A stretch of 64,000 bases of DNA from Haloplanus sp. (lineage in GTDB: Archaea > Halobacteriota > Halobacteria > Halobacteriales > Haloferacaceae). The position numbers were made by a program, and so were the translations under genes. Below the pieces are notes generated by a model. That model had not been told where the DNA came from and did not search any database. It was given only the letters and a program-made list of their open reading frames with translations. The stretch spans positions 1 through 64,000 of the forward strand of contig NZ_JAQCNJ010000046.1 in the NCBI RefSeq assembly GCF_028275055.1, read 5' to 3'. Of this stretch, positions 22,973-35,821 are shown in pieces; position 1 is the stretch's first letter, and each line of letters opens with the position of its first letter.

Positions 22973-23583
22973 TGGTCTTGACTGACGCGGTGGGTATAAT
23001 AATACCTACCGTCCGTTGCCGGGGGCATCCACCTGCGTGGTGTCAAACCATCCTGCTGTGTGACCATCGGGCCGGAATCGCACCGATGTCGTGGTGTCGG
23101 TCCCACCTCGATCCATCCGGCGGTCGGGGGTGATCGAGCGGCGTGACACACCGGGCTTGTGGAGGGAGGAATCGACGGACGAATAAGATGGCCCCGGTAC
23201 GACATCTGCTCCACGCGGTGAGTCGTTCCCGAGTGTGACCTCGCCCCCGAACCTGTACGGCCGGACCGGGCTCCGAACACCGGGTTCACCGGGTTCGTGT
23301 GTCCGACCGTCCCCTTTGTGTCGGTGATGATGGCGGCGACCCGTTCGCCGGCACAGCCGACGGCCTCCGAACCGCTTGCCACCTTCACGCTCGAGCGCCA
23401 CCCTTGTCGGCGTACATCGGTCACTGCGGCCCCTCCCGATCCGTCGTGACTCCCGATACAGCACGAGTCTCACAGCCGAGACCCAGCGGCAACGCCATCC
23501 GTTCTTTTCACGGACTACGCCTCGAACGGCATGCCGTTATCTAGATGTGGGAGTTATGTCGCCGTTCACTCTACGCACCTGTT
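22973..23583. other. Gene-poor stretch with promoter-like element and PAS relic
   Basis: About 610 bp between the broken kinase and the HemAT gene. It holds GGTATAATAATACC-like sequence at 22990-23005, probably the kinase promoter on the minus strand, and the decayed PAS fragment listed separately. No intact gene is supported on either strand. Confidence 0.5.
23220..23382 (-). pseudogene. Relic of a PAS domain
   Basis: On the minus strand a ~45-residue stretch reads AAIITDTKGTVGHTNPVNPV and then GRTGSGARSHSGTTHRVEQM. This follows the order of a haloarchaeal PAS domain (IIVTDTDGTIxYVNPAF followed by GRTPRxLxSGTHDxxYxxM), with the middle missing and no start, stop or partner domains. It is probably what is left of a Bat-type regulator or kinase. 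Confidence 0.35.
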
Positions 23584-25344
23584 ATGGCCGATTCGCCACA
23601 GTTTGGCCGCGACGACTTCGGACAGGGCGGTCTCAACGACCAGTTGGACGTTGACTCGCTGGTCGACGCCATCGGCCTCGACGAGTCCGAAATCCGGTGG
23701 CGAAAGGAGTTCGTCGGGTTCACCGACGACGATGTCCGCCGCCTCCGGACGTATCAGGATGACTTCGCCGCCAACGCCGAACAGGTGGCGGACGACTTCT
23801 ATGATAACCTGACCGACCACGACGAGACGGTCTCCGTTATCGAGCGCTCGCCGAAGGATCTCGAACAACTCAAGCGGACGCAATCGGCGTATCTCGTGAC
23901 GCTTGCCGAGGGTGAGTACGGCACGGAGTATTTCCGCGACCGGGCCCGTATCGGCAAACTTCACGACCTGCTGGAGATGCCGATGAAGCAGTATCTCGGC
24001 CAGTACGGTGTCTACTACGACCTCATCCTCCCGCTGGTCGGCGACCGCCTCGTCGAATCGCTCACCGACCGACTGACCGACGCCGCCACAGACGGCGGGG
24101 CCGAACCTGTGTCCGGCGAGCGAACGGACGAACCGGGACCACACGCCGGGGTCTCGCGTCGCGGGATCGAAGCGGCGATCGAGGAGGAGGTCGACGACGC
24201 CGTGCAGGATCTCCTCGCGATTCTCCGACTGATCGATCTCGATATGCAGGTGGTCACCGACACCTACATTCATTCCTACAGCCAGCAACTCGAAGAGGAG
24301 ACCGAGCGCAACCGGCAACTGATGGCCGATGTCGAGGCGGACGTGAAACAACCGGTGAGTGACCTCCAAACGAGCGCCGAGGACGTCGCCGAGAGCGCCA
24401 CTGCAATCAGCGATGCGGCGGCCCACCAGTCGGAACGGGTCGACGACATCTCGTCCGAGGTAGCGGATCTTTCGGCGACGGTCGAGGAGGTCGCCTCGAC
24501 AGCCGACCAGGTCGAGAACGCGAGCGAGCGGGCGGAAACGCTCGCGGTGGACGGCAAGGAGGCTGCCGACACCGCTGCCGAGGTCATGGACGACATCGGC
24601 GAGGCGGTAACCGACGTCGCGGACGACGTCGCCGCATTACAGGATCGCGTTCAACAGATAGACGAGTTCGTCGACGCCATCGACGGCATCGCCGAGCAGA
24701 CGAACATGCTCGCGCTGAACGCCTCGATCGAGGCCGCCCGTGCCGGGGAGGCGGGTGAGGGATTCGGCGTCGTCGCCGACGAGATCAAATCACTCGCCGA
24801 GGAGTCACAGACCCACGCCAGTGATATCGAGACGATGGTCGATGGAATCCGGGCGGATACCGAGGAGACGGCGGCGAATCTCGCTGCCACGACCGAACAG
24901 GTCGACGAGGGTATCGAACAGGTGCAGAACGCAATGAACAGCTTGACCGAAATCGTCGAGGCTGTCACCGAAACGGGGGACGGGATCAGCGAGGTCGCAG
25001 ACGCGACCGACGACCAGGCGGCTACCGCCGAGGAGATCGCGTCGATGGTCGACGATGTGGTCGGTCGGACCGACCGCGTCGCCAAGGAAACCGAAAGCCT
25101 GGCTGCCGCGAATCAGGAACAGGCGGCGATGGTTTCGGAGGTCGAGGAGTCGGTAACGCGCCTATCGGGTGACCGCTCCGCCACGGACGGCGGGCGAGAC
25201 GCCGTCACCACGACGGCCCCCGACGAGGTGTCGATTCCGGCCGATCTCCCCGACGACATGCCGGACGCCGCGGCGGAACTGCTCTCCGACGAACAACTTC
25301 GAGCGGTGGCTATCGGGACCCTCGACCCGAACGACCTGGCGTGA
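23584..25344 (+). CDS. HemAT-type globin-coupled aerotaxis transducer
   Basis: A 586-residue soluble chemoreceptor. Residues ~25-180 form a globin-coupled sensor domain: IRWRKEFVGFTDDDVRRL, YLVTLAEGEYGTEYF, and the proximal His in RIGKLHDLLEMP. No transmembrane or HAMP segments follow. Residues ~260-560 are a long coiled coil with the methyl-accepting hairpin tip (IAEQTNMLALNASIEAARAG and GFGVVADEIKSLAEES). HemAT proteins bind oxygen through heme and steer the swimming response via CheA/CheW. The ATG at 23584 fits family starts; thirteen extra residues upstream are possible. DICT and Bat-type genes follow on the same strand. Confidence 0.92.
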   Translation: MADSPQFGRDDFGQGGLNDQLDVDSLVDAIGLDESEIRWRKEFVGFTDDDVRRLRTYQDDFAANAEQVADDFYDNLTDHDETVSVIERSPKDLEQLKRTQSAYLVTLAEGEYGTEYFRDRARIGKLHDLLEMPMKQYLGQYGVYYDLILPLVGDRLVESLTDRLTDAATDGGAEPVSGERTDEPGPHAGVSRRGIEAAIEEEVDDAVQDLLAILRLIDLDMQVVTDTYIHSYSQQLEEETERNRQLMADVEADVKQPVSDLQTSAEDVAESATAISDAAAHQSERVDDISSEVADLSATVEEVASTADQVENASERAETLAVDGKEAADTAAEVMDDIGEAVTDVADDVAALQDRVQQIDEFVDAIDGIAEQTNMLALNASIEAARAGEAGEGFGVVADEIKSLAEESQTHASDIETMVDGIRADTEETAANLAATTEQVDEGIEQVQNAMNSLTEIVEAVTETGDGISEVADATDDQAATAEEIASMVDDVVGRTDRVAKETESLAAANQEQAAMVSEVEESVTRLSGDRSATDGGRDAVTTTAPDEVSIPADLPDDMPDAAAELLSDEQLRAVAIGTLDPNDLA

Positions 25345-29059: not shown

Positions 29060-29539
29060 ATGAGCAACCGAGAGGTCGACGACGTGGACAGGGCAATCCT
29101 GTACGCGTTACAGAAGGACGCCAGAAACACCTCGTCGGGCGACATCGCCGAGCGGACCGGTACCTCGGACAGCACCGTCCGCAAGCGGATCCAGCGACTC
29201 GAGACCAACGACATCATCAAGGGGTACAGCGCCGACGTCGACTACCAGGCTTCGGGCTACCCGCTCAGAATGTTGTTGTTCTGCACCGCGTCCATCGCCG
29301 ACCGGGGTGAACTCATCCCCGAGATACTCCGTATCGACGGGGTCGTCTCGGTCCAAGAACTGGTCACCGGCGACCGAAACCTCCTCGTGACGGCCGTCGG
29401 CGAGACGGACAACGACATCACACCCGTCGCCCAGGACCTCATCGACATGGGACTGACGGTCGCCGACGAGGTGTTGGTCCGGAGCCACGAGACGACGCCC
29501 TTTGGGGAGTTCGACCCCGAGACCGATCCGGACGACTAG
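29060..29539 (+). CDS. Lrp/AsnC family transcriptional regulator
   Basis: A 159-residue regulator. An N-terminal winged helix (VDRAILYALQKDARNTSSGD, then RTGTSDSTVRKRIQRLE) is followed by the ligand-binding RAM-like domain with VVSVQELVTGDRNLLVTAVG. The ATG at 29060 is chosen over an upstream in-frame start because the HTH begins at residue 8. It is convergent with the amidohydrolase; the two share a 4-bp overlap over CTAG at the stop codons. The ligand is unknown, and a link to the neighbouring deaminase-like gene is only positional. Confidence 0.88.
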   Translation: MSNREVDDVDRAILYALQKDARNTSSGDIAERTGTSDSTVRKRIQRLETNDIIKGYSADVDYQASGYPLRMLLFCTASIADRGELIPEILRIDGVVSVQELVTGDRNLLVTAVGETDNDITPVAQDLIDMGLTVADEVLVRSHETTPFGEFDPETDPDD

Positions 29540-30552
29540 GTGATGACCCGGTCGACGTCCAGAGCGGTCGCACGCCGAACGACCGCCCGCACCGGATCGG
29601 CCGTGCCGGCCAGATTGTCCGAGTCGCCGTCGAGAACCAGGAGCGCGGCCCGTCGCCCGGGTTCGATCAGGCCGCAGTCGAGCCCAACGATTTCGGCCCC
29701 AGCACGCGTCGCCATCCCCAGCACCTCCCGGGCGGTCACGTCGAATCGTTTTGCCGTGTACGCCATCTCCCGAAACATCGACGGCGGGTTCAACATCACG
29801 TTATCGGTCCCCAACGCGACGGTCGTGTGATCGAGAAGGTCACGGATCGGTGGCCGGCCGACGCCGAGTACCGTGTTCGCGCGCGGGCAGACAGCGACCG
29901 GCACCGCCTCGTCGGCGACGCGGTCGAGATGGTCGGGTCCCGCGTGGATCATGTGGACGAGCAGATCCGGAGCCAGGTCGAGTGCGGGGTGGACGTCCGT
30001 CGGATCCGGTTCGCCGGCGTGGATGGCGAAGGGGACGCCCCGTTCCTCGGCGGCGGCGCGCTGCTCGGTGAAGTCGTCGTCGTTCGCGCCGCTCGCCCCG
30101 TAGCCGTCCGCGACGTCGAGAACGGATCGATCCCCGCTGCCGAACACGAACGGCTCCACGTCGACCGGGCGGGCCGCATCGCGGAGCGCACGGACGCCCT
30201 CGACGCCCGACTCGCGGAAATCCAGACAGGACGCCGTCCCCGTCTTTCGCATAAACCGGAGCGTCCGCCGTATCGCCGTCACGAGGTCGGATCTGTCGGC
30301 GGTCGACAGCCGCCGGTGTTTCAGGCTGTCCGGCGGGGCCACCGCCTCGTCGAGCGACAGGCCCACGCCCGCCTCCTTCGCGACGGAGTCCCCGAGATGC
30401 GTGTGGGCGTTGACAAACGCCGGCGCGACGATGTCGGTTGAGTCCGTCTCCGCCTCCTCGACGGCCTCGATCCGGCCGCCCTTGACGGCGACTCGTCCCC
30501 GAATCGGGTCGAACGACTCCCCGCGTAGCACGGTCCCCTCGATCAGCTTCAT
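29536..30552 (-). CDS. Amidohydrolase family protein (deaminase-like)
   Basis: A 338-residue metal-dependent hydrolase. The first metal site is VNAHTHLGDS, then AIHAGEPDPTDVHPAL, HMIHAGPDHLDRVADE, and the Asp site VALGTDNVMLNPPS. The C-terminal beta-domain carries AALLVLDGDSDNL. The set resembles cytosine, guanine or S-adenosylhomocysteine deaminase-like enzymes. The substrate cannot be fixed. Length is slightly short for the family, but the ends are complete. Its stop codon overlaps that of the Lrp gene. Confidence 0.85.
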   Translation of the reverse strand: MKLIEGTVLRGESFDPIRGRVAVKGGRIEAVEEAETDSTDIVAPAFVNAHTHLGDSVAKEAGVGLSLDEAVAPPDSLKHRRLSTADRSDLVTAIRRTLRFMRKTGTASCLDFRESGVEGVRALRDAARPVDVEPFVFGSGDRSVLDVADGYGASGANDDDFTEQRAAAEERGVPFAIHAGEPDPTDVHPALDLAPDLLVHMIHAGPDHLDRVADEAVPVAVCPRANTVLGVGRPPIRDLLDHTTVALGTDNVMLNPPSMFREMAYTAKRFDVTAREVLGMATRAGAEIVGLDCGLIEPGRRAALLVLDGDSDNLAGTADPVRAVVRRATALDVDRVIT

Positions 30553-30723: not shown

Positions 30724-30820
30724 CCGCGAGCGAGAAACATAATGTTCTATGATACGAAATTTTGGAACGATTTGTGAATATAGATAGATTTAATAACCGA
30801 TTCGTTCGTATATCTGGTAA
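30724..30820 (+). promoter_or_regulatory. AT-rich promoter region upstream of dabB
   Basis: About 100 bp of distinctly AT-rich sequence, including ATAGATAGATTTAATAACCG, lies in the ~325 bp between the amidohydrolase start and dabB. The AT-rich block ends ~60 nt before the DabB ATG. The rest of the gap has no supported gene. The TTTAATAA motif at 30788-30795 could be a TATA-like element serving the dab genes, which would leave a leader of ~60 nt. Confidence 0.45.
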
Positions 30821-30877
30821 CGACGACCGGCGTGCGTGGTCGTGGGCGGCGGCCCGCCCGGTCGTTGCCGGACAACG

Positions 30878-32362
30878 ATGGCAGGAGATCAACGGACGAC
30901 AACGGTTGGGGAGCTTCCGACGCCGGAACCGGACGGGACGCGTCTCCCGGCGGTGGTGACGACGGTGGTATGGCTTCTGTGGGCCGTGAGTTGTGTCGCC
31001 CTCGGCGTCCAGTCCCGGACCGGCGCCTGGGACCTCGCCGGCGTCGTGCGCGTGGACGGCCTGACGGCCGTGATGTGGACGACAGTGACCTTCTTCAGCG
31101 GGATCGTCCACAGTTACTCGCGGCGGTATATGACCGGCGATCGGACGATCGACCGCTTTTTCGCCCGCGTGTTCGCGTTCACGCTGGTCGTGATGCTTCT
31201 GGTTGCGGCCGACAGCCTCGCGCTGTTCTGGGTGGCGTGGCTCGTGATGGGGCTTCTGATGGCCGGGTTGATCGGTCACGTCGGGGACTGGCAGCAGGCG
31301 CGGGCGGCGTCGTCGCTCGCGCGGCGGTACTTTGTGGCCGGTAGCGCGTCGCTCGCAGTCGGGTTCGTGAGCCTCTGGTGGGTTACCGGTGCAACGACCG
31401 TTTCCGGCGTCGCATCCGCCCTCGGAGCCGACGCTCCGGCGGCCGTTCTTCTCGCCGCCGGCGCACTCCTGCTTGCGGCGTCGATCCAATCGGCGCTGGT
31501 TCCGTTTCACGCCTGGCTGCTCTCGTCGATGACGGCCCCGACGCCGGCCTCCACGCTGATGCACGCCGGCTTCGTCAACGCCGGCGGGGTTCTTCTCGTG
31601 CGCTTTGCTCCCGTCGTCACCGCCGATTCGGCGGTCATGCTCGGTATCGTTCTCGTCGGCGCGGCGAGCGCCCTCGGTGGGAAGCTCCTGAAGACCGTCC
31701 GGACGGATATCAAGGGCCAACTCGGCTGCTCGACGGTCGGCCAGATGGGCTTTATGATCATGCAGGCCGGTCTCGGCTTCTTTGCCGCCGCCATCGCCCA
31801 TCTGATTCTCCACGGGTTCTACAAGGCCTACCGGTTTCTCTCCTCGGGGAGTCACGTCGGCCACGAACACCCCGACCCCTCGACTCCGGCCGAATCGATG
31901 GGCCCGCTCGGTGCCGCCGTCGTCGTCGGCACCGCGCTCGCGGGCGGTGGTCTGTTCGCCGTTCTCACCGGAAAGGGAACGGGCGTCGACAGCGGCCTTC
32001 TGCTCACGCTTGTGGTCGTTCTGACCGTCGTCCATGCGGCCCGTGACGTGGTCACACACGCCGCGTTGCCGCCGGCGATCCGGTACGGCGCCGTTCCGCT
32101 CGTCGCGCTGCCGGCGCTCGCCGCCTATGCCGCCATCTACCGCGTTCTCGACGGGCTTTTGACCGGCCTGCCGGCGACCGGTCAGCCCGTGGCACTGACA
32201 CCGATCCACGGGTTCGTCGCCGCCGCGTTCGTCGTCGTCTACCTCGCCGTCGAGCGCGGTGCCTACACGCGCAGTCGGCGGCTGTACGTGGCGTTGCTGA
32301 ACGCGGGCCGCCCGCCGACCGACACCCTGCTGACAAACACGGAGGAGTACGATGAGCACTGA
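30878..32362 (+). CDS. dabB: DabB, proton-conducting membrane subunit of the inorganic carbon uptake complex
   Basis: A 494-residue membrane protein of the NADH-quinone oxidoreductase subunit L/antiporter type, with ~12-14 helices. The family core is seen as ITFFSGIVHSYSRRYM-like text (here VTFFSGIVHSYSRRYM), FWVAWLVMGLLMAGLIGHVG, the PFHAWLLSSMTAPTPAST region and GHVGHEH-like loops. DabB powers DabA in taking up CO2 or bicarbonate in bacteria. It directly precedes and overlaps the dabA gene by 11 nt, which settles the identification. The ATG at 30878 is chosen because it gives a family-like start. Confidence 0.88.
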   Translation: MAGDQRTTTVGELPTPEPDGTRLPAVVTTVVWLLWAVSCVALGVQSRTGAWDLAGVVRVDGLTAVMWTTVTFFSGIVHSYSRRYMTGDRTIDRFFARVFAFTLVVMLLVAADSLALFWVAWLVMGLLMAGLIGHVGDWQQARAASSLARRYFVAGSASLAVGFVSLWWVTGATTVSGVASALGADAPAAVLLAAGALLLAASIQSALVPFHAWLLSSMTAPTPASTLMHAGFVNAGGVLLVRFAPVVTADSAVMLGIVLVGAASALGGKLLKTVRTDIKGQLGCSTVGQMGFMIMQAGLGFFAAAIAHLILHGFYKAYRFLSSGSHVGHEHPDPSTPAESMGPLGAAVVVGTALAGGGLFAVLTGKGTGVDSGLLLTLVVVLTVVHAARDVVTHAALPPAIRYGAVPLVALPALAAYAAIYRVLDGLLTGLPATGQPVALTPIHGFVAAAFVVVYLAVERGAYTRSRRLYVALLNAGRPPTDTLLTNTEEYDEH

Positions 32363-34802
32363 CACTTCGATCCACGGAGGTATCGACGCGGCGGCCGATG
32401 CGGTCGGCTCCGTCTGGCCGCTCCATTCGTTCGTGACGGCAAACCCACTGGCTGGGTTCGAGGACCGACCGTTTCACGAGGCCGTCGCGGACGCCGAACG
32501 TGTTCTCGGCGGCGACGGGTACCCCAGCGCCGACGTGTTTCGTCGGGCGTGGGAGGCCGGCCGGATCGATCCCGGTGAACTTCGCTCCAGACTGACAGCC
32601 CACGGGTACGACGCCGACCCGGCGGCGTCGCTCGACCGCATGGCCGAGCGGACGGTCGCCGGCCGCGAGACGGTAGCAGAGACCGACCGGGTCGACGCGG
32701 TCCTGACGAAGTGGCTCTCGGCCTTTCTCGATCAGGGGCAGGCGACGTGGCCGATGCCGAACCGCGAACAGGGGTTCTACCGCGCGTTTTGCGCCGTCGC
32801 TCCCTACGACGGCGAGATTCCGGATGGCGACGTTCTCGCCGACCTCCCCGATGACCCGGCCGATGCCATCCGAGACCGCCTCTCCAACTACCCCGTCGAC
32901 CGGTGGCCGGATATCTTCGAGTTCCAGTTGGCGGCGCTCCCGGGCTGGACGGGCCTTCTCAAGCAACGGGCCGCTGCCGGGGGCGACTGGCAGTCGGCGT
33001 TCCCGATCACGCTAGCGGGGTACCTGGCTGTCCGGCTGACGCTCACGGCCCAGTTCGACGCGCCCATCGCGCCGGCGGAGGCCCCCGGCGACGTCGACGA
33101 CGCCGCGACGGACGGCGACCGTGTCCCACTTCCCGAGGTCTGGTTGTCCGCGTGGGAGGCGACATACCGCGCGGAACTGGTCGAGTCGGTCGCCGACGCG
33201 ACCGACTCGGTCGCGGACACCGGCGAGGGGGACGGCGACGCCGACCGGCCGGTCGCCCAACTGGTCTTTTGTATCGACACCCGATCGGAGATCATCCGGC
33301 GCCACGTCGAGGCGGCGGGAAACTACGAAACCCACGGCTACGCCGGCTTCTTCGGCATCCCGATGCGCCACGACGGCTACGAGTCGGACGTGGCCACCGA
33401 CGCCTGTCCGCCGATCCTCGACCCCGAACACCGGATCAGGGACCGGCCGGCCGACGGCGCGGCCGACGAACGCGACGACTACGATCGGTGGGACACCGTT
33501 CTCGACGCGGCGAAGTCGGCGGTCCACGGCCTCGAGTCAAACGCCGCGACGGCGTTCAGTTTCGTTGAGAGCGCCGGCTTTGGATACGGGGCGGCGCTGG
33601 CCGCTCGGACCCTCCTCCCGGGTCGTGTGGCCGACCTGCTCGCCGCCGCCGACGGACGCGTCCCCGACCGACACGAGTTCTGTGAGCCCTCGGTCGACCA
33701 CGACCCGGATACAGAGGGCGACCTCCCCGAGGGACTCACGCTCGAAGAACGGGTCGAGTACGCCGCGACGGCGTTCGAACTGATGGGCTGGGAGGAGTTT
33801 TCCCGGCTCGTCGTCTTCACCGGCCACGGCAGTCGGACGGCGAACAACCCGTTCGACTCCAGTCTCGACTGCGGTGCCTGTGCGGGCAACCCCGGCGGGC
33901 CAAACGCCCGTGTTCTTGCGGCCATCTGCAACGACGATGCGGTCAGGGCGGCACTCCGCGACCGCGGCATCGACGTACCGGAGGACACCGTCTTTCTCGC
34001 CGGCGAACACAACACGACGACCGACGAGGTGGAACTGTACGCGTCGACCGTTCCCGAGAGCCACGAGGCGGCTCTTGATCGCCTCCGCGCCGACCTCGAC
34101 ACCGCCCGTGCCGGTGCGGCCGCCGAACGCGCCGGCGACATGGGGGCCGACCCCGACTCCGGGCTCCGCGACACACGCCGCCGCGCCGTCGACTGGGCGG
34201 AGACGCGGCCGGAGTGGGGACTGGCCGGAAACGCCGGATTCGTCATCGGCCCCCGCGCCCTGACTGACGGCCTTGACCTGGACGGCCGCGCGTTTCTCCA
34301 CTCCTACGACTGGACGACCGATCCGGACGGCGACGGCCTCGAGGCGATCCTAACCGGACCGCTGGTCGTCACCCAGTGGATCAACACGCAGTACTACTTC
34401 GCGACGGTCGACAACGCGGCGTATGGAAGCGGATCGAAGGTAACACACAACCCCGTTGGCAACGTCGGCGTCTACCAGGGCAACGGCGGCGACCTGATGA
34501 CCGGGCTCCCCCTCCAGTCGCTGATGAGCGGCGACGACGAGCCGTACCACCAGCCGCTCCGTCTCTCGACGGTCGTCCACGCGCCGACCGACCGCGTAAC
34601 CGAGATTCTGGCCGACAACGAGCAGATCGCCGGGCTTCTGGACAACGGGTGGTTGTCCCTGACCGTCGTCGATCCGACACAGAACGGCCGTGCGTTCCAC
34701 TACGACGGTGACCTCGCTTGGACGCCGGTCGCCGAGCGCCGGACGGTCGGCGCGGCCACCACTGACCCGGAACCGGCCACACCCTCGGCCGCAGGCGACT
34801 GA
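32352..34802 (+). CDS. dabA: DabA (DUF2309), carbonic-anhydrase-like subunit of the inorganic carbon uptake complex
   Basis: An 816-residue DUF2309 protein. The four residues expected to bind zinc are present with the spacing known from Halothiobacillus DabA: C307 and D309 in VFCIDTRSE, H492 in VFTGHGSRTANN, and C507 in SSLDCGACAGNP (C351/D353/H524/C539 in the bacterial protein, same intervals of 2 and 15). An N-terminal WPLHSFVTANPLAGFEDRPF and a C-terminal QWINTQYYFATVDN also match. DabA converts CO2 to bicarbonate inside the cell, coupled to ion flow through DabB. Length is normal. Confidence 0.92.
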   Translation: MSTDTSIHGGIDAAADAVGSVWPLHSFVTANPLAGFEDRPFHEAVADAERVLGGDGYPSADVFRRAWEAGRIDPGELRSRLTAHGYDADPAASLDRMAERTVAGRETVAETDRVDAVLTKWLSAFLDQGQATWPMPNREQGFYRAFCAVAPYDGEIPDGDVLADLPDDPADAIRDRLSNYPVDRWPDIFEFQLAALPGWTGLLKQRAAAGGDWQSAFPITLAGYLAVRLTLTAQFDAPIAPAEAPGDVDDAATDGDRVPLPEVWLSAWEATYRAELVESVADATDSVADTGEGDGDADRPVAQLVFCIDTRSEIIRRHVEAAGNYETHGYAGFFGIPMRHDGYESDVATDACPPILDPEHRIRDRPADGAADERDDYDRWDTVLDAAKSAVHGLESNAATAFSFVESAGFGYGAALAARTLLPGRVADLLAAADGRVPDRHEFCEPSVDHDPDTEGDLPEGLTLEERVEYAATAFELMGWEEFSRLVVFTGHGSRTANNPFDSSLDCGACAGNPGGPNARVLAAICNDDAVRAALRDRGIDVPEDTVFLAGEHNTTTDEVELYASTVPESHEAALDRLRADLDTARAGAAAERAGDMGADPDSGLRDTRRRAVDWAETRPEWGLAGNAGFVIGPRALTDGLDLDGRAFLHSYDWTTDPDGDGLEAILTGPLVVTQWINTQYYFATVDNAAYGSGSKVTHNPVGNVGVYQGNGGDLMTGLPLQSLMSGDDEPYHQPLRLSTVVHAPTDRVTEILADNEQIAGLLDNGWLSLTVVDPTQNGRAFHYDGDLAWTPVAERRTVGAATTDPEPATPSAAGD

Positions 34803-34909
34803 GCCCGGTCGATCCCACGTTGACGCCGTTTTAGGCTCGCCCGGCGTCTACGTGAGGTCACCGCCGCGTCCACCCGCGGAATTTTGTACGATGCGCCGCT
34901 ACACCGATC

Positions 34910-35821
34910 GTGTCTCTCCGTGCGCCCTCCCCGGAGATTCTCCGACCGATCGGTGCCGAGCTGGGGCTTATCACCGGCGTGTTCGTCGTTCTGTATCTCT
35001 GGCAACGCCTCCTCCGTGCCGCCCCGTTGGCCGCCGTCCAGCCTTCGGTCGGTGGACCCCCGGCCGCCGGTGCCGTCAACGGCGGACTCCTGCTTTGTGG
35101 TATCGTGGCCGTCGTCGGCGCGTACGCCGCGGTTCGGGACGTCGATGCCGGCGTGATCCGTCCCTCGGCCGCCGATCTGTGGTGGGCCGGACCGGCGACG
35201 CTGACGCCGCCAGCCCTCGTCACGCTCACCGCGCTCGTCGGCTCGGCAACCGGCGTCCGGTACGGCTCGTTGACCGGCACCGCCGTCGCCGCCGATCCGC
35301 CGCTTGGTCCGGTGGTGCTCGTCGCCGGGCTTGGCCTCCTCATCGGCGTTCCATCGCTCGTCGCGGTGTGTCAGGTGGTCGTTCAGGGAAGCTTCGCACA
35401 CGTCGTCGATGGTGATACCGCGGCGCTCCTGACGACGGCCCTGACCGGGTTCGTTGCGGTGAGCAACACCGGTGGTCTGACCCCGATCCCCGATACCGGG
35501 CGTCTCATCGGCGTCGTTGGCCTCGCGGGCCTCCTCGGTGTCGGCGTGTTCGTGGACGAACGGACCGACCGCCGTCCGGCCCGACTCCTCGGTTATCTTC
35601 CCGCCGCGGCGCTCGGACTGCTCGTCGTCGGTTCGGGGCTGGCAGGCGTCGGCTCCGCCGCCGCCGGGTTGTTCGCGGCGACGCGGCTCGCCACCCTCGG
35701 GATCGCCGCGTGGTCGTACGACCGAACGGGGTCGCTTCTCGTTCCGGCGCTCGCGTACGCGTCCGTGCTGTTGGCCGATCAGGTCGTCGTGGTAGTTTTC
35801 GAGGCGGGAGCAGGGCTGTGA
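34910..35821 (+). CDS. Multi-pass membrane protein of unknown function
   Basis: A 303-residue very hydrophobic protein with about eight predicted helices, for example LGLITGVFVVLYLWQRLL at the start. The C-terminal part (AATRLATLGIAAWSYDRTGS, then VLLADQVVVVVFEAG) faintly resembles the end of CPBP-type membrane proteins, but the paired Glu and His of that protease family are not seen. GTG at 34910 is used as start. It follows dabA by ~107 nt on the same strand, so it may belong to that transcription unit, although nothing shows a functional link. Confidence 0.65.
   Translation: MSLRAPSPEILRPIGAELGLITGVFVVLYLWQRLLRAAPLAAVQPSVGGPPAAGAVNGGLLLCGIVAVVGAYAAVRDVDAGVIRPSAADLWWAGPATLTPPALVTLTALVGSATGVRYGSLTGTAVAADPPLGPVVLVAGLGLLIGVPSLVAVCQVVVQGSFAHVVDGDTAALLTTALTGFVAVSNTGGLTPIPDTGRLIGVVGLAGLLGVGVFVDERTDRRPARLLGYLPAAALGLLVVGSGLAGVGSAAAGLFAATRLATLGIAAWSYDRTGSLLVPALAYASVLLADQVVVVVFEAGAGL

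What the first reader, a model, noticed from the sequence alone, without database searches (positions are those of the whole stretch)
30724..35821. Dab inorganic carbon uptake complex in a haloarchaeon, with a possible third gene
DabA keeps all four predicted zinc ligands at the bacterial spacing and DabB is intact, so the complex should work. A heterotrophic haloarchaeon may use it to supply carboxylases such as PccB, also in this window. A 303-residue membrane protein follows closely and could be a new partner. The AT-rich region upstream may respond to CO2 or pH.
Basis: partly seen in the sequence, partly recalled or inferred. Interest (0 to 1): 0.55.

Follow-up and report, generated by a model that had tools for sequence, protein, structure and literature searches.

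The report
Haloarchaeal CO2-uptake operon with its own regulator
The window holds an ordinary, intact CO2-uptake (DAB) gene pair of a salt-loving archaeon; its conserved companion is not the membrane gene behind it but a regulator gene in front of it, together with a three-part DNA switch that recurs across this group of archaea.

Summary
The dabB-dabA pair is real and intact. DabA keeps every zinc and active-site residue of the solved Halothiobacillus DAB2, but DabB, like nearly all haloarchaeal DabBs, lacks the TM7 lysine and its ion-pair partners. DAB in haloarchaea is already known (190 of 294 class genomes here; dabAB named in Haloferax volcanii). The 'third gene' at 34910 is not a partner. 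It lies beside dabA only here and in one sister species, elsewhere it is unlinked, and it looks like a decayed CPBP/Rce1-type membrane protein. The conserved companion is upstream: an Lrp/AsnC-family regulator (29060-29539) present at 59 of 62 haloarchaeal dab loci. Close homologues occur in 185 of 190 dab+ genomes and 1 of 104 dab- genomes. The AT-rich region upstream of dabB carries three 13-bp GAAC-N5-GTTC-type sites 30-31 bp apart around the TATA box, in 46 of 58 loci against 24 of 2900 shuffles. This matches archaeal Lrp operators with three-helical-turn spacing. A 5'-leader hairpin with some covariation follows. Best reading: PMF-driven CO2 hydration by DAB, switched by a dedicated Lrp-type regulator on a three-site operator. 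Binding, signal and direction of control are inferred.

The parts
29060..29539 (+). Lrp/AsnC-family regulator (159 aa), the conserved dab companion; AsnC-type HTH, C-terminal domain not matched by any Pfam ligand-domain model
   Evidence: 59/62 haloarchaeal dab loci, always upstream and same strand, 65-92% identity; 185/190 dab+ vs 1/104 dab- genomes; HTH only in Pfam
29536..30552 (-). amidohydrolase-superfamily enzyme, divergent from dabB; frequent but optional neighbour
   Evidence: PF01979 E 3.6e-31; next to dab in 23/62 loci; unlinked in others
30735..30747 (.). operator-like site 1 AAACATAATGTTC
   Evidence: 13-bp GAAC-N5-GTTC-type palindrome, 30 bp before site 2
30765..30777 (.). operator-like site 2 GAACGATTTGTGA
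   Evidence: perfect palindrome in e.g. L063, L080, L081, L091, L093
30789..30795 (+). TATA-like box TTTAATA between sites 2 and 3
   Evidence: aligned in the same place upstream of dabB in most of 58 loci
30795..30807 (.). operator-like site 3 AACCGATTCGTTC
   Evidence: 30 bp after site 2
30824..30864 (+). candidate 5'-leader hairpin (outer arms CGACCG 30824-30829 / CGGTCG 30859-30864)
   Evidence: 15 two-sided changes vs 5.1 +/- 1.8 shuffled, 0/500; mean z -1.67 vs -0.79 inside dabB; no Rfam match above chance level
30878..32362 (+). dabB (494 aa from the conserved ATG)
   Evidence: PF00361 E 7.2e-38; 9rd0_B E 1.1e-36; start
32352..34802 (+). dabA (816 aa), overlaps dabB by 11 bp
   Evidence: PF10070 E 7.2e-264; active-site residues
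   Evidence: hhalign vs CPBP prob 91-96, controls <1; unlinked to dabA outside one sister species

Best explanation
This is a haloarchaeal DAB (DabAB) inorganic-carbon uptake operon. DabB conducts an ion down the membrane gradient and DabA, a buried beta-carbonic-anhydrase-like zinc site, hydrates CO2 one way to bicarbonate for carboxylases (inferred from homology and retained residues). Transcription from the TATA box at 30789 is controlled by the adjacent Lrp/AsnC-family protein, which binds as phased dimers to three 13-bp sites 30-31 bp apart that flank and overlap the promoter, in the manner of archaeal Ss-LrpB. The conservation of regulator and array is shown; the binding, the signal (CO2/bicarbonate or a metabolite) and the sign of regulation are inferred. 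A leader hairpin may add post-transcriptional control. The gene at 34910 is not part of the unit.
For: DabA family and full residue match, with the finger-helix Glu (E406 = E444) in 61 of 61 haloarchaeal DabAs that align there. DabB keeps S256, H260, K310, S316, H339, H343, K347 in 62/62. Regulator: 59/62 loci and 185/190 vs 1/104 genomes. Operator: three sites of at least 5/8 at 30-31 bp in 46/58 loci vs 24/2900 shuffles; 47/58 loci score at least 17 vs 0.26% of shuffles. The two second-copy dab loci without the regulator (L178, L180) also lack the array. In the pattern scan of 294 genomes the AT-rich, promoter-like matches I checked lie at dab, and the rest read as GC-rich chance hits. A review reports 13-bp palindromic sites, two- or three-turn spacing, and about 100 bp wrapped around three Ss-LrpB dimers (PMC2995911). 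27 of 29 beta-CA-less genomes have dab.
Against: No experiment: binding of this Lrp to the array, its effector and the phenotype are untested. The C-terminal domain is not recognised as the usual amino-acid (RAM) domain, so the effector cannot be read off. Co-occurrence counts are not corrected for phylogeny. The regulator's own promoter lacks the array (0/59), unlike autoregulated Ss-LrpB. DabB lacks the K235/D185/R182 network, so coupling may differ from DAB2.
Confidence: 0.72

Rival explanations
1. Three-gene complex: the 303-aa membrane protein at 34910 is a DabC-like subunit of the uptake complex.
For: Same strand, 107 bp after dabA, polytopic; also downstream of dabA in sister genome G096.
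Against: 10/12 genus genomes have the gene and 12/12 have dabA, but they are neighbours only in the window and in G096, where about 0.8 kb separates them; in G325 and G328 it sits near the Cdc48-like gene instead. No homologue within 6 kb of any of 44 named haloarchaeal-type dab loci. Genomes with the gene but no dabA exist (G078, G019). It resembles CPBP proteases, not Dab parts.
Confidence: 0.03
2. The three sites are operators for another regulator, and the neighbouring Lrp regulates something else.
For: The pairing of Lrp and sites is inferred only; Lrp specificities vary widely and natural sites are degenerate (PMC2995911).
Against: Lrp and array co-occur and are both missing at the two second-copy dab loci; 13-bp palindromes with three-turn spacing are typical of Lrp proteins.
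Confidence: 0.15
3. The haloarchaeal complex works as a sodium-bicarbonate system (MpsAB-like) or an ion-translocating enzyme rather than as a proton-driven vectorial carbonic anhydrase.
For: MpsAB has been proposed to use sodium (PMC8552792; PMC13144422); haloarchaeal DabB lacks the TM7 Lys and partner Asp/Arg, as does the staphylococcal homologue L181.
Against: All DabA catalytic residues and the remaining DabB proton-path residues are kept. In DAB2, alanine changes of the ion-pair residues cut growth yield by only 30-60%.
Confidence: 0.2

Closest known systems
DAB2 complex (DabA2/DabB2) of Halothiobacillus neapolitanus (PDB 9rd0; PMC13144422)
   Same: Two-subunit NuoL-like plus beta-CA-like architecture, all DabA active-site residues, finger-helix Glu, most of the DabB proton path
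   Different: DabB TM7 Lys235 is Gln and Asp185/Arg182 are lost (61/62 haloarchaeal DabBs have Gln); Lrp-type instead of LysR-type neighbour; host class described as heterotrophic
dabAB of Haloferax volcanii (HVO_2410/HVO_2411; PMC8305020) and the YbcC-NuoL pair noted in Haloarchaea (PMC5700660)
   Same: Same gene pair in the same class of archaea
   Different: Those papers predict the pair from homology or neighbourhood; in the passages read, they do not mention the Lrp regulator, the three-site array or the leader hairpin
Ss-LrpB of Sulfolobus and its three-site operator (PMC2995911, PMC4046817)
   Same: Lrp/AsnC-type protein; three palindromic sites in phase on one DNA face
   Different: Different site sequence (GAAC-N5-GTTC vs TTGCAAAATTTGCAA); array lies at the target operon, not at the regulator's own gene; divergent C-terminal domain
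LysR- or PII-linked bacterial dab loci (L182-L184, L186; PMC5700660)
   Same: A dedicated regulator gene next to dab
   Different: LysR or PII there, Lrp/AsnC here
CPBP/Rce1-like membrane proteases (PF02517), for the gene at 34910
   Same: Remote profile similarity across the core, including the RTGSLLVPALAY segment
   Different: Lacks the EExxxR and catalytic His motifs; below Pfam detection

Membership tests
DabA (PF10070) | Full-length PF10070 domain | tested here: met
   positions 1-747 of 747, E 7.2e-264
DabA (PF10070) | Cys2His zinc site plus Asp-Arg dyad at DabA2 spacing | tested here: met
   C307, H492, C507, D309, R311
DabA (PF10070) | Membrane finger helix with Glu444 | tested here: met
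   E406; 61 of 61 haloarchaeal DabAs that align there
DabB | NuoL-like membrane subunit encoded with dabA, conserved polar proton path | tested here: met
   PF00361; equivalents of S256, H260, K310, S316, H339, H343, K347 conserved 62/62
DabB | TM7 Lys235 - Asp185 ion pair of DAB2 | tested here: not met
   Q and S; Gln in 61/62 haloarchaeal DabBs; varies in some bacteria too. Not a strict family criterion
DAB transporter function | PMF-dependent CO2 hydration or rescue of a CA-minus host | not testable with these tools
   needs experiment
Lrp/AsnC regulators | N-terminal AsnC-type HTH | tested here: met
   PF13404 E 6.5e-13, above cut-off
Lrp/AsnC regulators | C-terminal RAM ligand domain (PF01037) | tested here: inconclusive
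   no PF01037 match in four family members at E up to 10, though lists for three were cut at 25 rows; profile matches solved Lrp proteins as far as about residue 110-129
Ss-LrpB-type three-site operator | Three palindromic sites in helical phase | tested here: met
   46/58 loci vs 24/2900 shuffles
Ss-LrpB-type three-site operator | Direct binding by the Lrp | not testable with these tools
   needs EMSA or ChIP
CPBP/Rce1-like (gene at 34910) | PF02517 match above cut-off and catalytic EExxxR/His motifs | tested here: not met
   no Pfam match above cut-off, motifs absent in the family alignment; only remote profile similarity

The most novel reading that the evidence does not exclude
Haloarchaea carry a dedicated inorganic-carbon sensor-regulator: an Lrp-like protein whose divergent, strongly conserved C-terminal domain senses CO2/bicarbonate (or a direct proxy) and switches dabBA through a three-site wrapped operator, with a second layer in a structured 5' leader.
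Probability: 0.25. Interest if true: 0.75.

Novelty: new variant of a known kind. Interest (0 to 1): 0.45.

Why it matters
I found no archaeal inorganic-carbon regulator in the papers searched. A regulator nearly always inherited with the CO2-uptake genes, together with its mapped operator, makes the question 'how does a heterotrophic archaeon sense and meet its CO2 demand?' directly testable in Haloferax volcanii, which carries dabAB. The loss of the DabB ion pair in a whole class also offers a natural variant for testing how DAB couples ion flow to catalysis.

Tried and rejected
Third-gene partner: rejected on synteny. AzlD assignment of the third gene: best Pfam match, below cut-off (E 0.02), in only one of 17 homologues. 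Amidohydrolase as obligate partner: rejected, present at 23/62 loci. DAB as replacement for carbonic anhydrase in general: not supported as a strict rule, since 163 dab+ genomes also have beta-CA. Known riboswitch or other Rfam element in the leader: only one weak match nearby (RAGATH-12, E 7.1, 13 bits against a gathering score of 75), treated as chance. Autoregulatory array at the lrp gene: absent. Replacement gene at the dab-less, regulator-bearing genome G187: the amidohydrolase region shows neither Lrp nor dab, nothing obvious. Structure prediction of the third gene was not run: its homologues came from a source outside the tool's stated list, and a single-sequence model would be poor.

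Full report
What is there. The dab pair is real. DabA (32352-34802, 816 aa) matches PF10070 end to end (E 7.2e-264) and the solved H. neapolitanus DabA2. Residues discussed for DAB2 (PMC13144422) were mapped: zinc ligands C351/H524/C539, dyad D353/R355, S356, H585, D590, L658 and the finger-helix E444 are all present. Of the gating residues, A376, F378, R653, W656 and P704 are kept; L629 is M and A703 is G here. DabB starts at the conserved ATG 30878, not at GTG 30836. It keeps the main proton-path residues (62/62 haloarchaeal DabBs), but K235 is Gln (61/62), D185 is Ser and R182 is missing. In DAB2 these are modulators, with growth yield down 30-60% on alanine change, so function is not excluded, but coupling may differ.

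DAB in haloarchaea is known. 190 of 294 class genomes and 12 of 12 genomes of this genus carry it. The gene pair was noted in Haloarchaea in 2017 (PMC5700660), named dabAB in Haloferax volcanii (PMC8305020), and reported for heterotrophic class Halobacteria (PMC10880623). The host is a haloarchaeon; its family appears to be that of Haloparvum sedimenti, from a contig-length match (G014:C132 and NZ_LKIR01000089.1, both 96635 bases), an inference. The genus was not identified.

The third gene. The 303-aa frame is a real, conserved membrane protein (21 of 99 family genomes), but 10 of 12 genus genomes have it and only the window and G096 have it beside dabA. In G325 and G328 it lies next to the genes that follow the Cdc48-like gene, far from their dab loci. 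None of 44 named haloarchaeal-type dab loci has it within the flank held (up to 6 kb). Profile comparison places it near CPBP/Rce1-like proteins (probability 91-96; controls with DabB and reversed profiles below 1), with the catalytic motifs missing.

The conserved companion. Annotated loci of Halorientalis, Halorussus and Haloarcula pointed upstream. A 159-aa Lrp/AsnC protein (29060-29539) lies upstream on the same strand in 59 of 62 haloarchaeal dab loci, median 80% identical. In 294 genomes a close homologue (E below 1e-55) occurs in 185 of 190 dab+ and 1 of 104 dab- genomes. I set the threshold after seeing a two-peaked E-value list, and the counts are not phylogeny-corrected. Of the five exceptions, G252 and G311 have only weak, split dabA matches and G014's dabA is near a contig start. 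Pfam finds the AsnC HTH but no RAM-domain match in the lists returned; solved Lrp proteins match as far as about residue 110-129. The divergent amidohydrolase is at 23/62 loci. Bacterial loci often have LysR or PII in this role.

The promoter. In 58 aligned upstream regions three 13-bp sites of the type GAAC-N5-GTTC recur every 30-31 bp, with the TATA-like box between sites 2 and 3. In the window they are 30735-30747, 30765-30777 and 30795-30807. Perfect 8/8 sites total 13 against 0.38 in dinucleotide shuffles. Triples with each site at least 5/8 occur in 46/58 loci against 24/2900 base-shuffled sequences. The two second-copy dab loci without the Lrp lack the array. The regulator's own promoter lacks it (0/59). 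In the pattern search of 294 genomes 200 genomes had a match; the AT-rich promoter-like matches I could place lie at dab, others are GC-rich and look like chance, and the list is truncated. A review of archaeal Lrp proteins describes 13-bp palindromes, spacing of two or three helical turns, and wrapping around three Ss-LrpB dimers (PMC2995911).

The leader. Between the predicted start site and the dabB ATG lies a short hairpin with arms CGACCG/CGGTCG. Across 52 sequences 86.5% of cells pair, 15 cells change on both sides against 5.1 +/- 1.8 shuffled (0/500), and sliding the partner destroys this. Folding is only modestly better than shuffles (mean z -1.67 against -0.79 inside dabB), and Rfam gives nothing above chance level. 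I treat it as a candidate.

Function. 27 of 29 class genomes without beta-carbonic anhydrase carry dab, against 163 of 265 with it (odds ratio 8.4, p 0.0004, uncorrected for phylogeny). This fits bicarbonate supply to carboxylases. The carboxyltransferase gene near the window end gives no special link.

What is shown and what is inferred. Shown: gene pair, active-site retention, DabB substitutions, regulator linkage, array, lack of third-gene linkage. Inferred: CO2 uptake in this organism, binding of the Lrp to the array, its signal and sign, and any role of the hairpin. No paper found in the held library mentions the Lrp-dab link; supplements and subscription journals were not searched, so priority is not established.

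Noticed in passing
L178, L180 (G328, G325): Second dab copies with dabB on the opposite strand from dabA, without the Lrp gene and without the operator array.
   Followed up: partly
L179, about 3.2 kb upstream of dabA (midpoints); L189 5666-6334: A beta-carbonic anhydrase gene sits between the amidohydrolase and dabB in a few haloarchaeal dab loci (81% identical between the two); weak beta-CA matches lie near dab in several other loci, including Natrialbaceae-type ones.
   Followed up: partly
window 30824-30864: Candidate covarying hairpin in the 5' leader of dabB, conserved in haloarchaea, not in Rfam.
   Followed up: partly
L185 (Mycolicibacterium plasmid): dabB-dabA followed by a small transcriptional regulator and a carbonic anhydrase on a small mobilizable plasmid.
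   Followed up: no
G187: Genome without dab and without beta-CA that still has a close homologue of the dab-linked Lrp.
   Followed up: partly
window 23545-25344: Protoglobin domain fused to a chemoreceptor signalling domain (HemAT-like).
   Followed up: no
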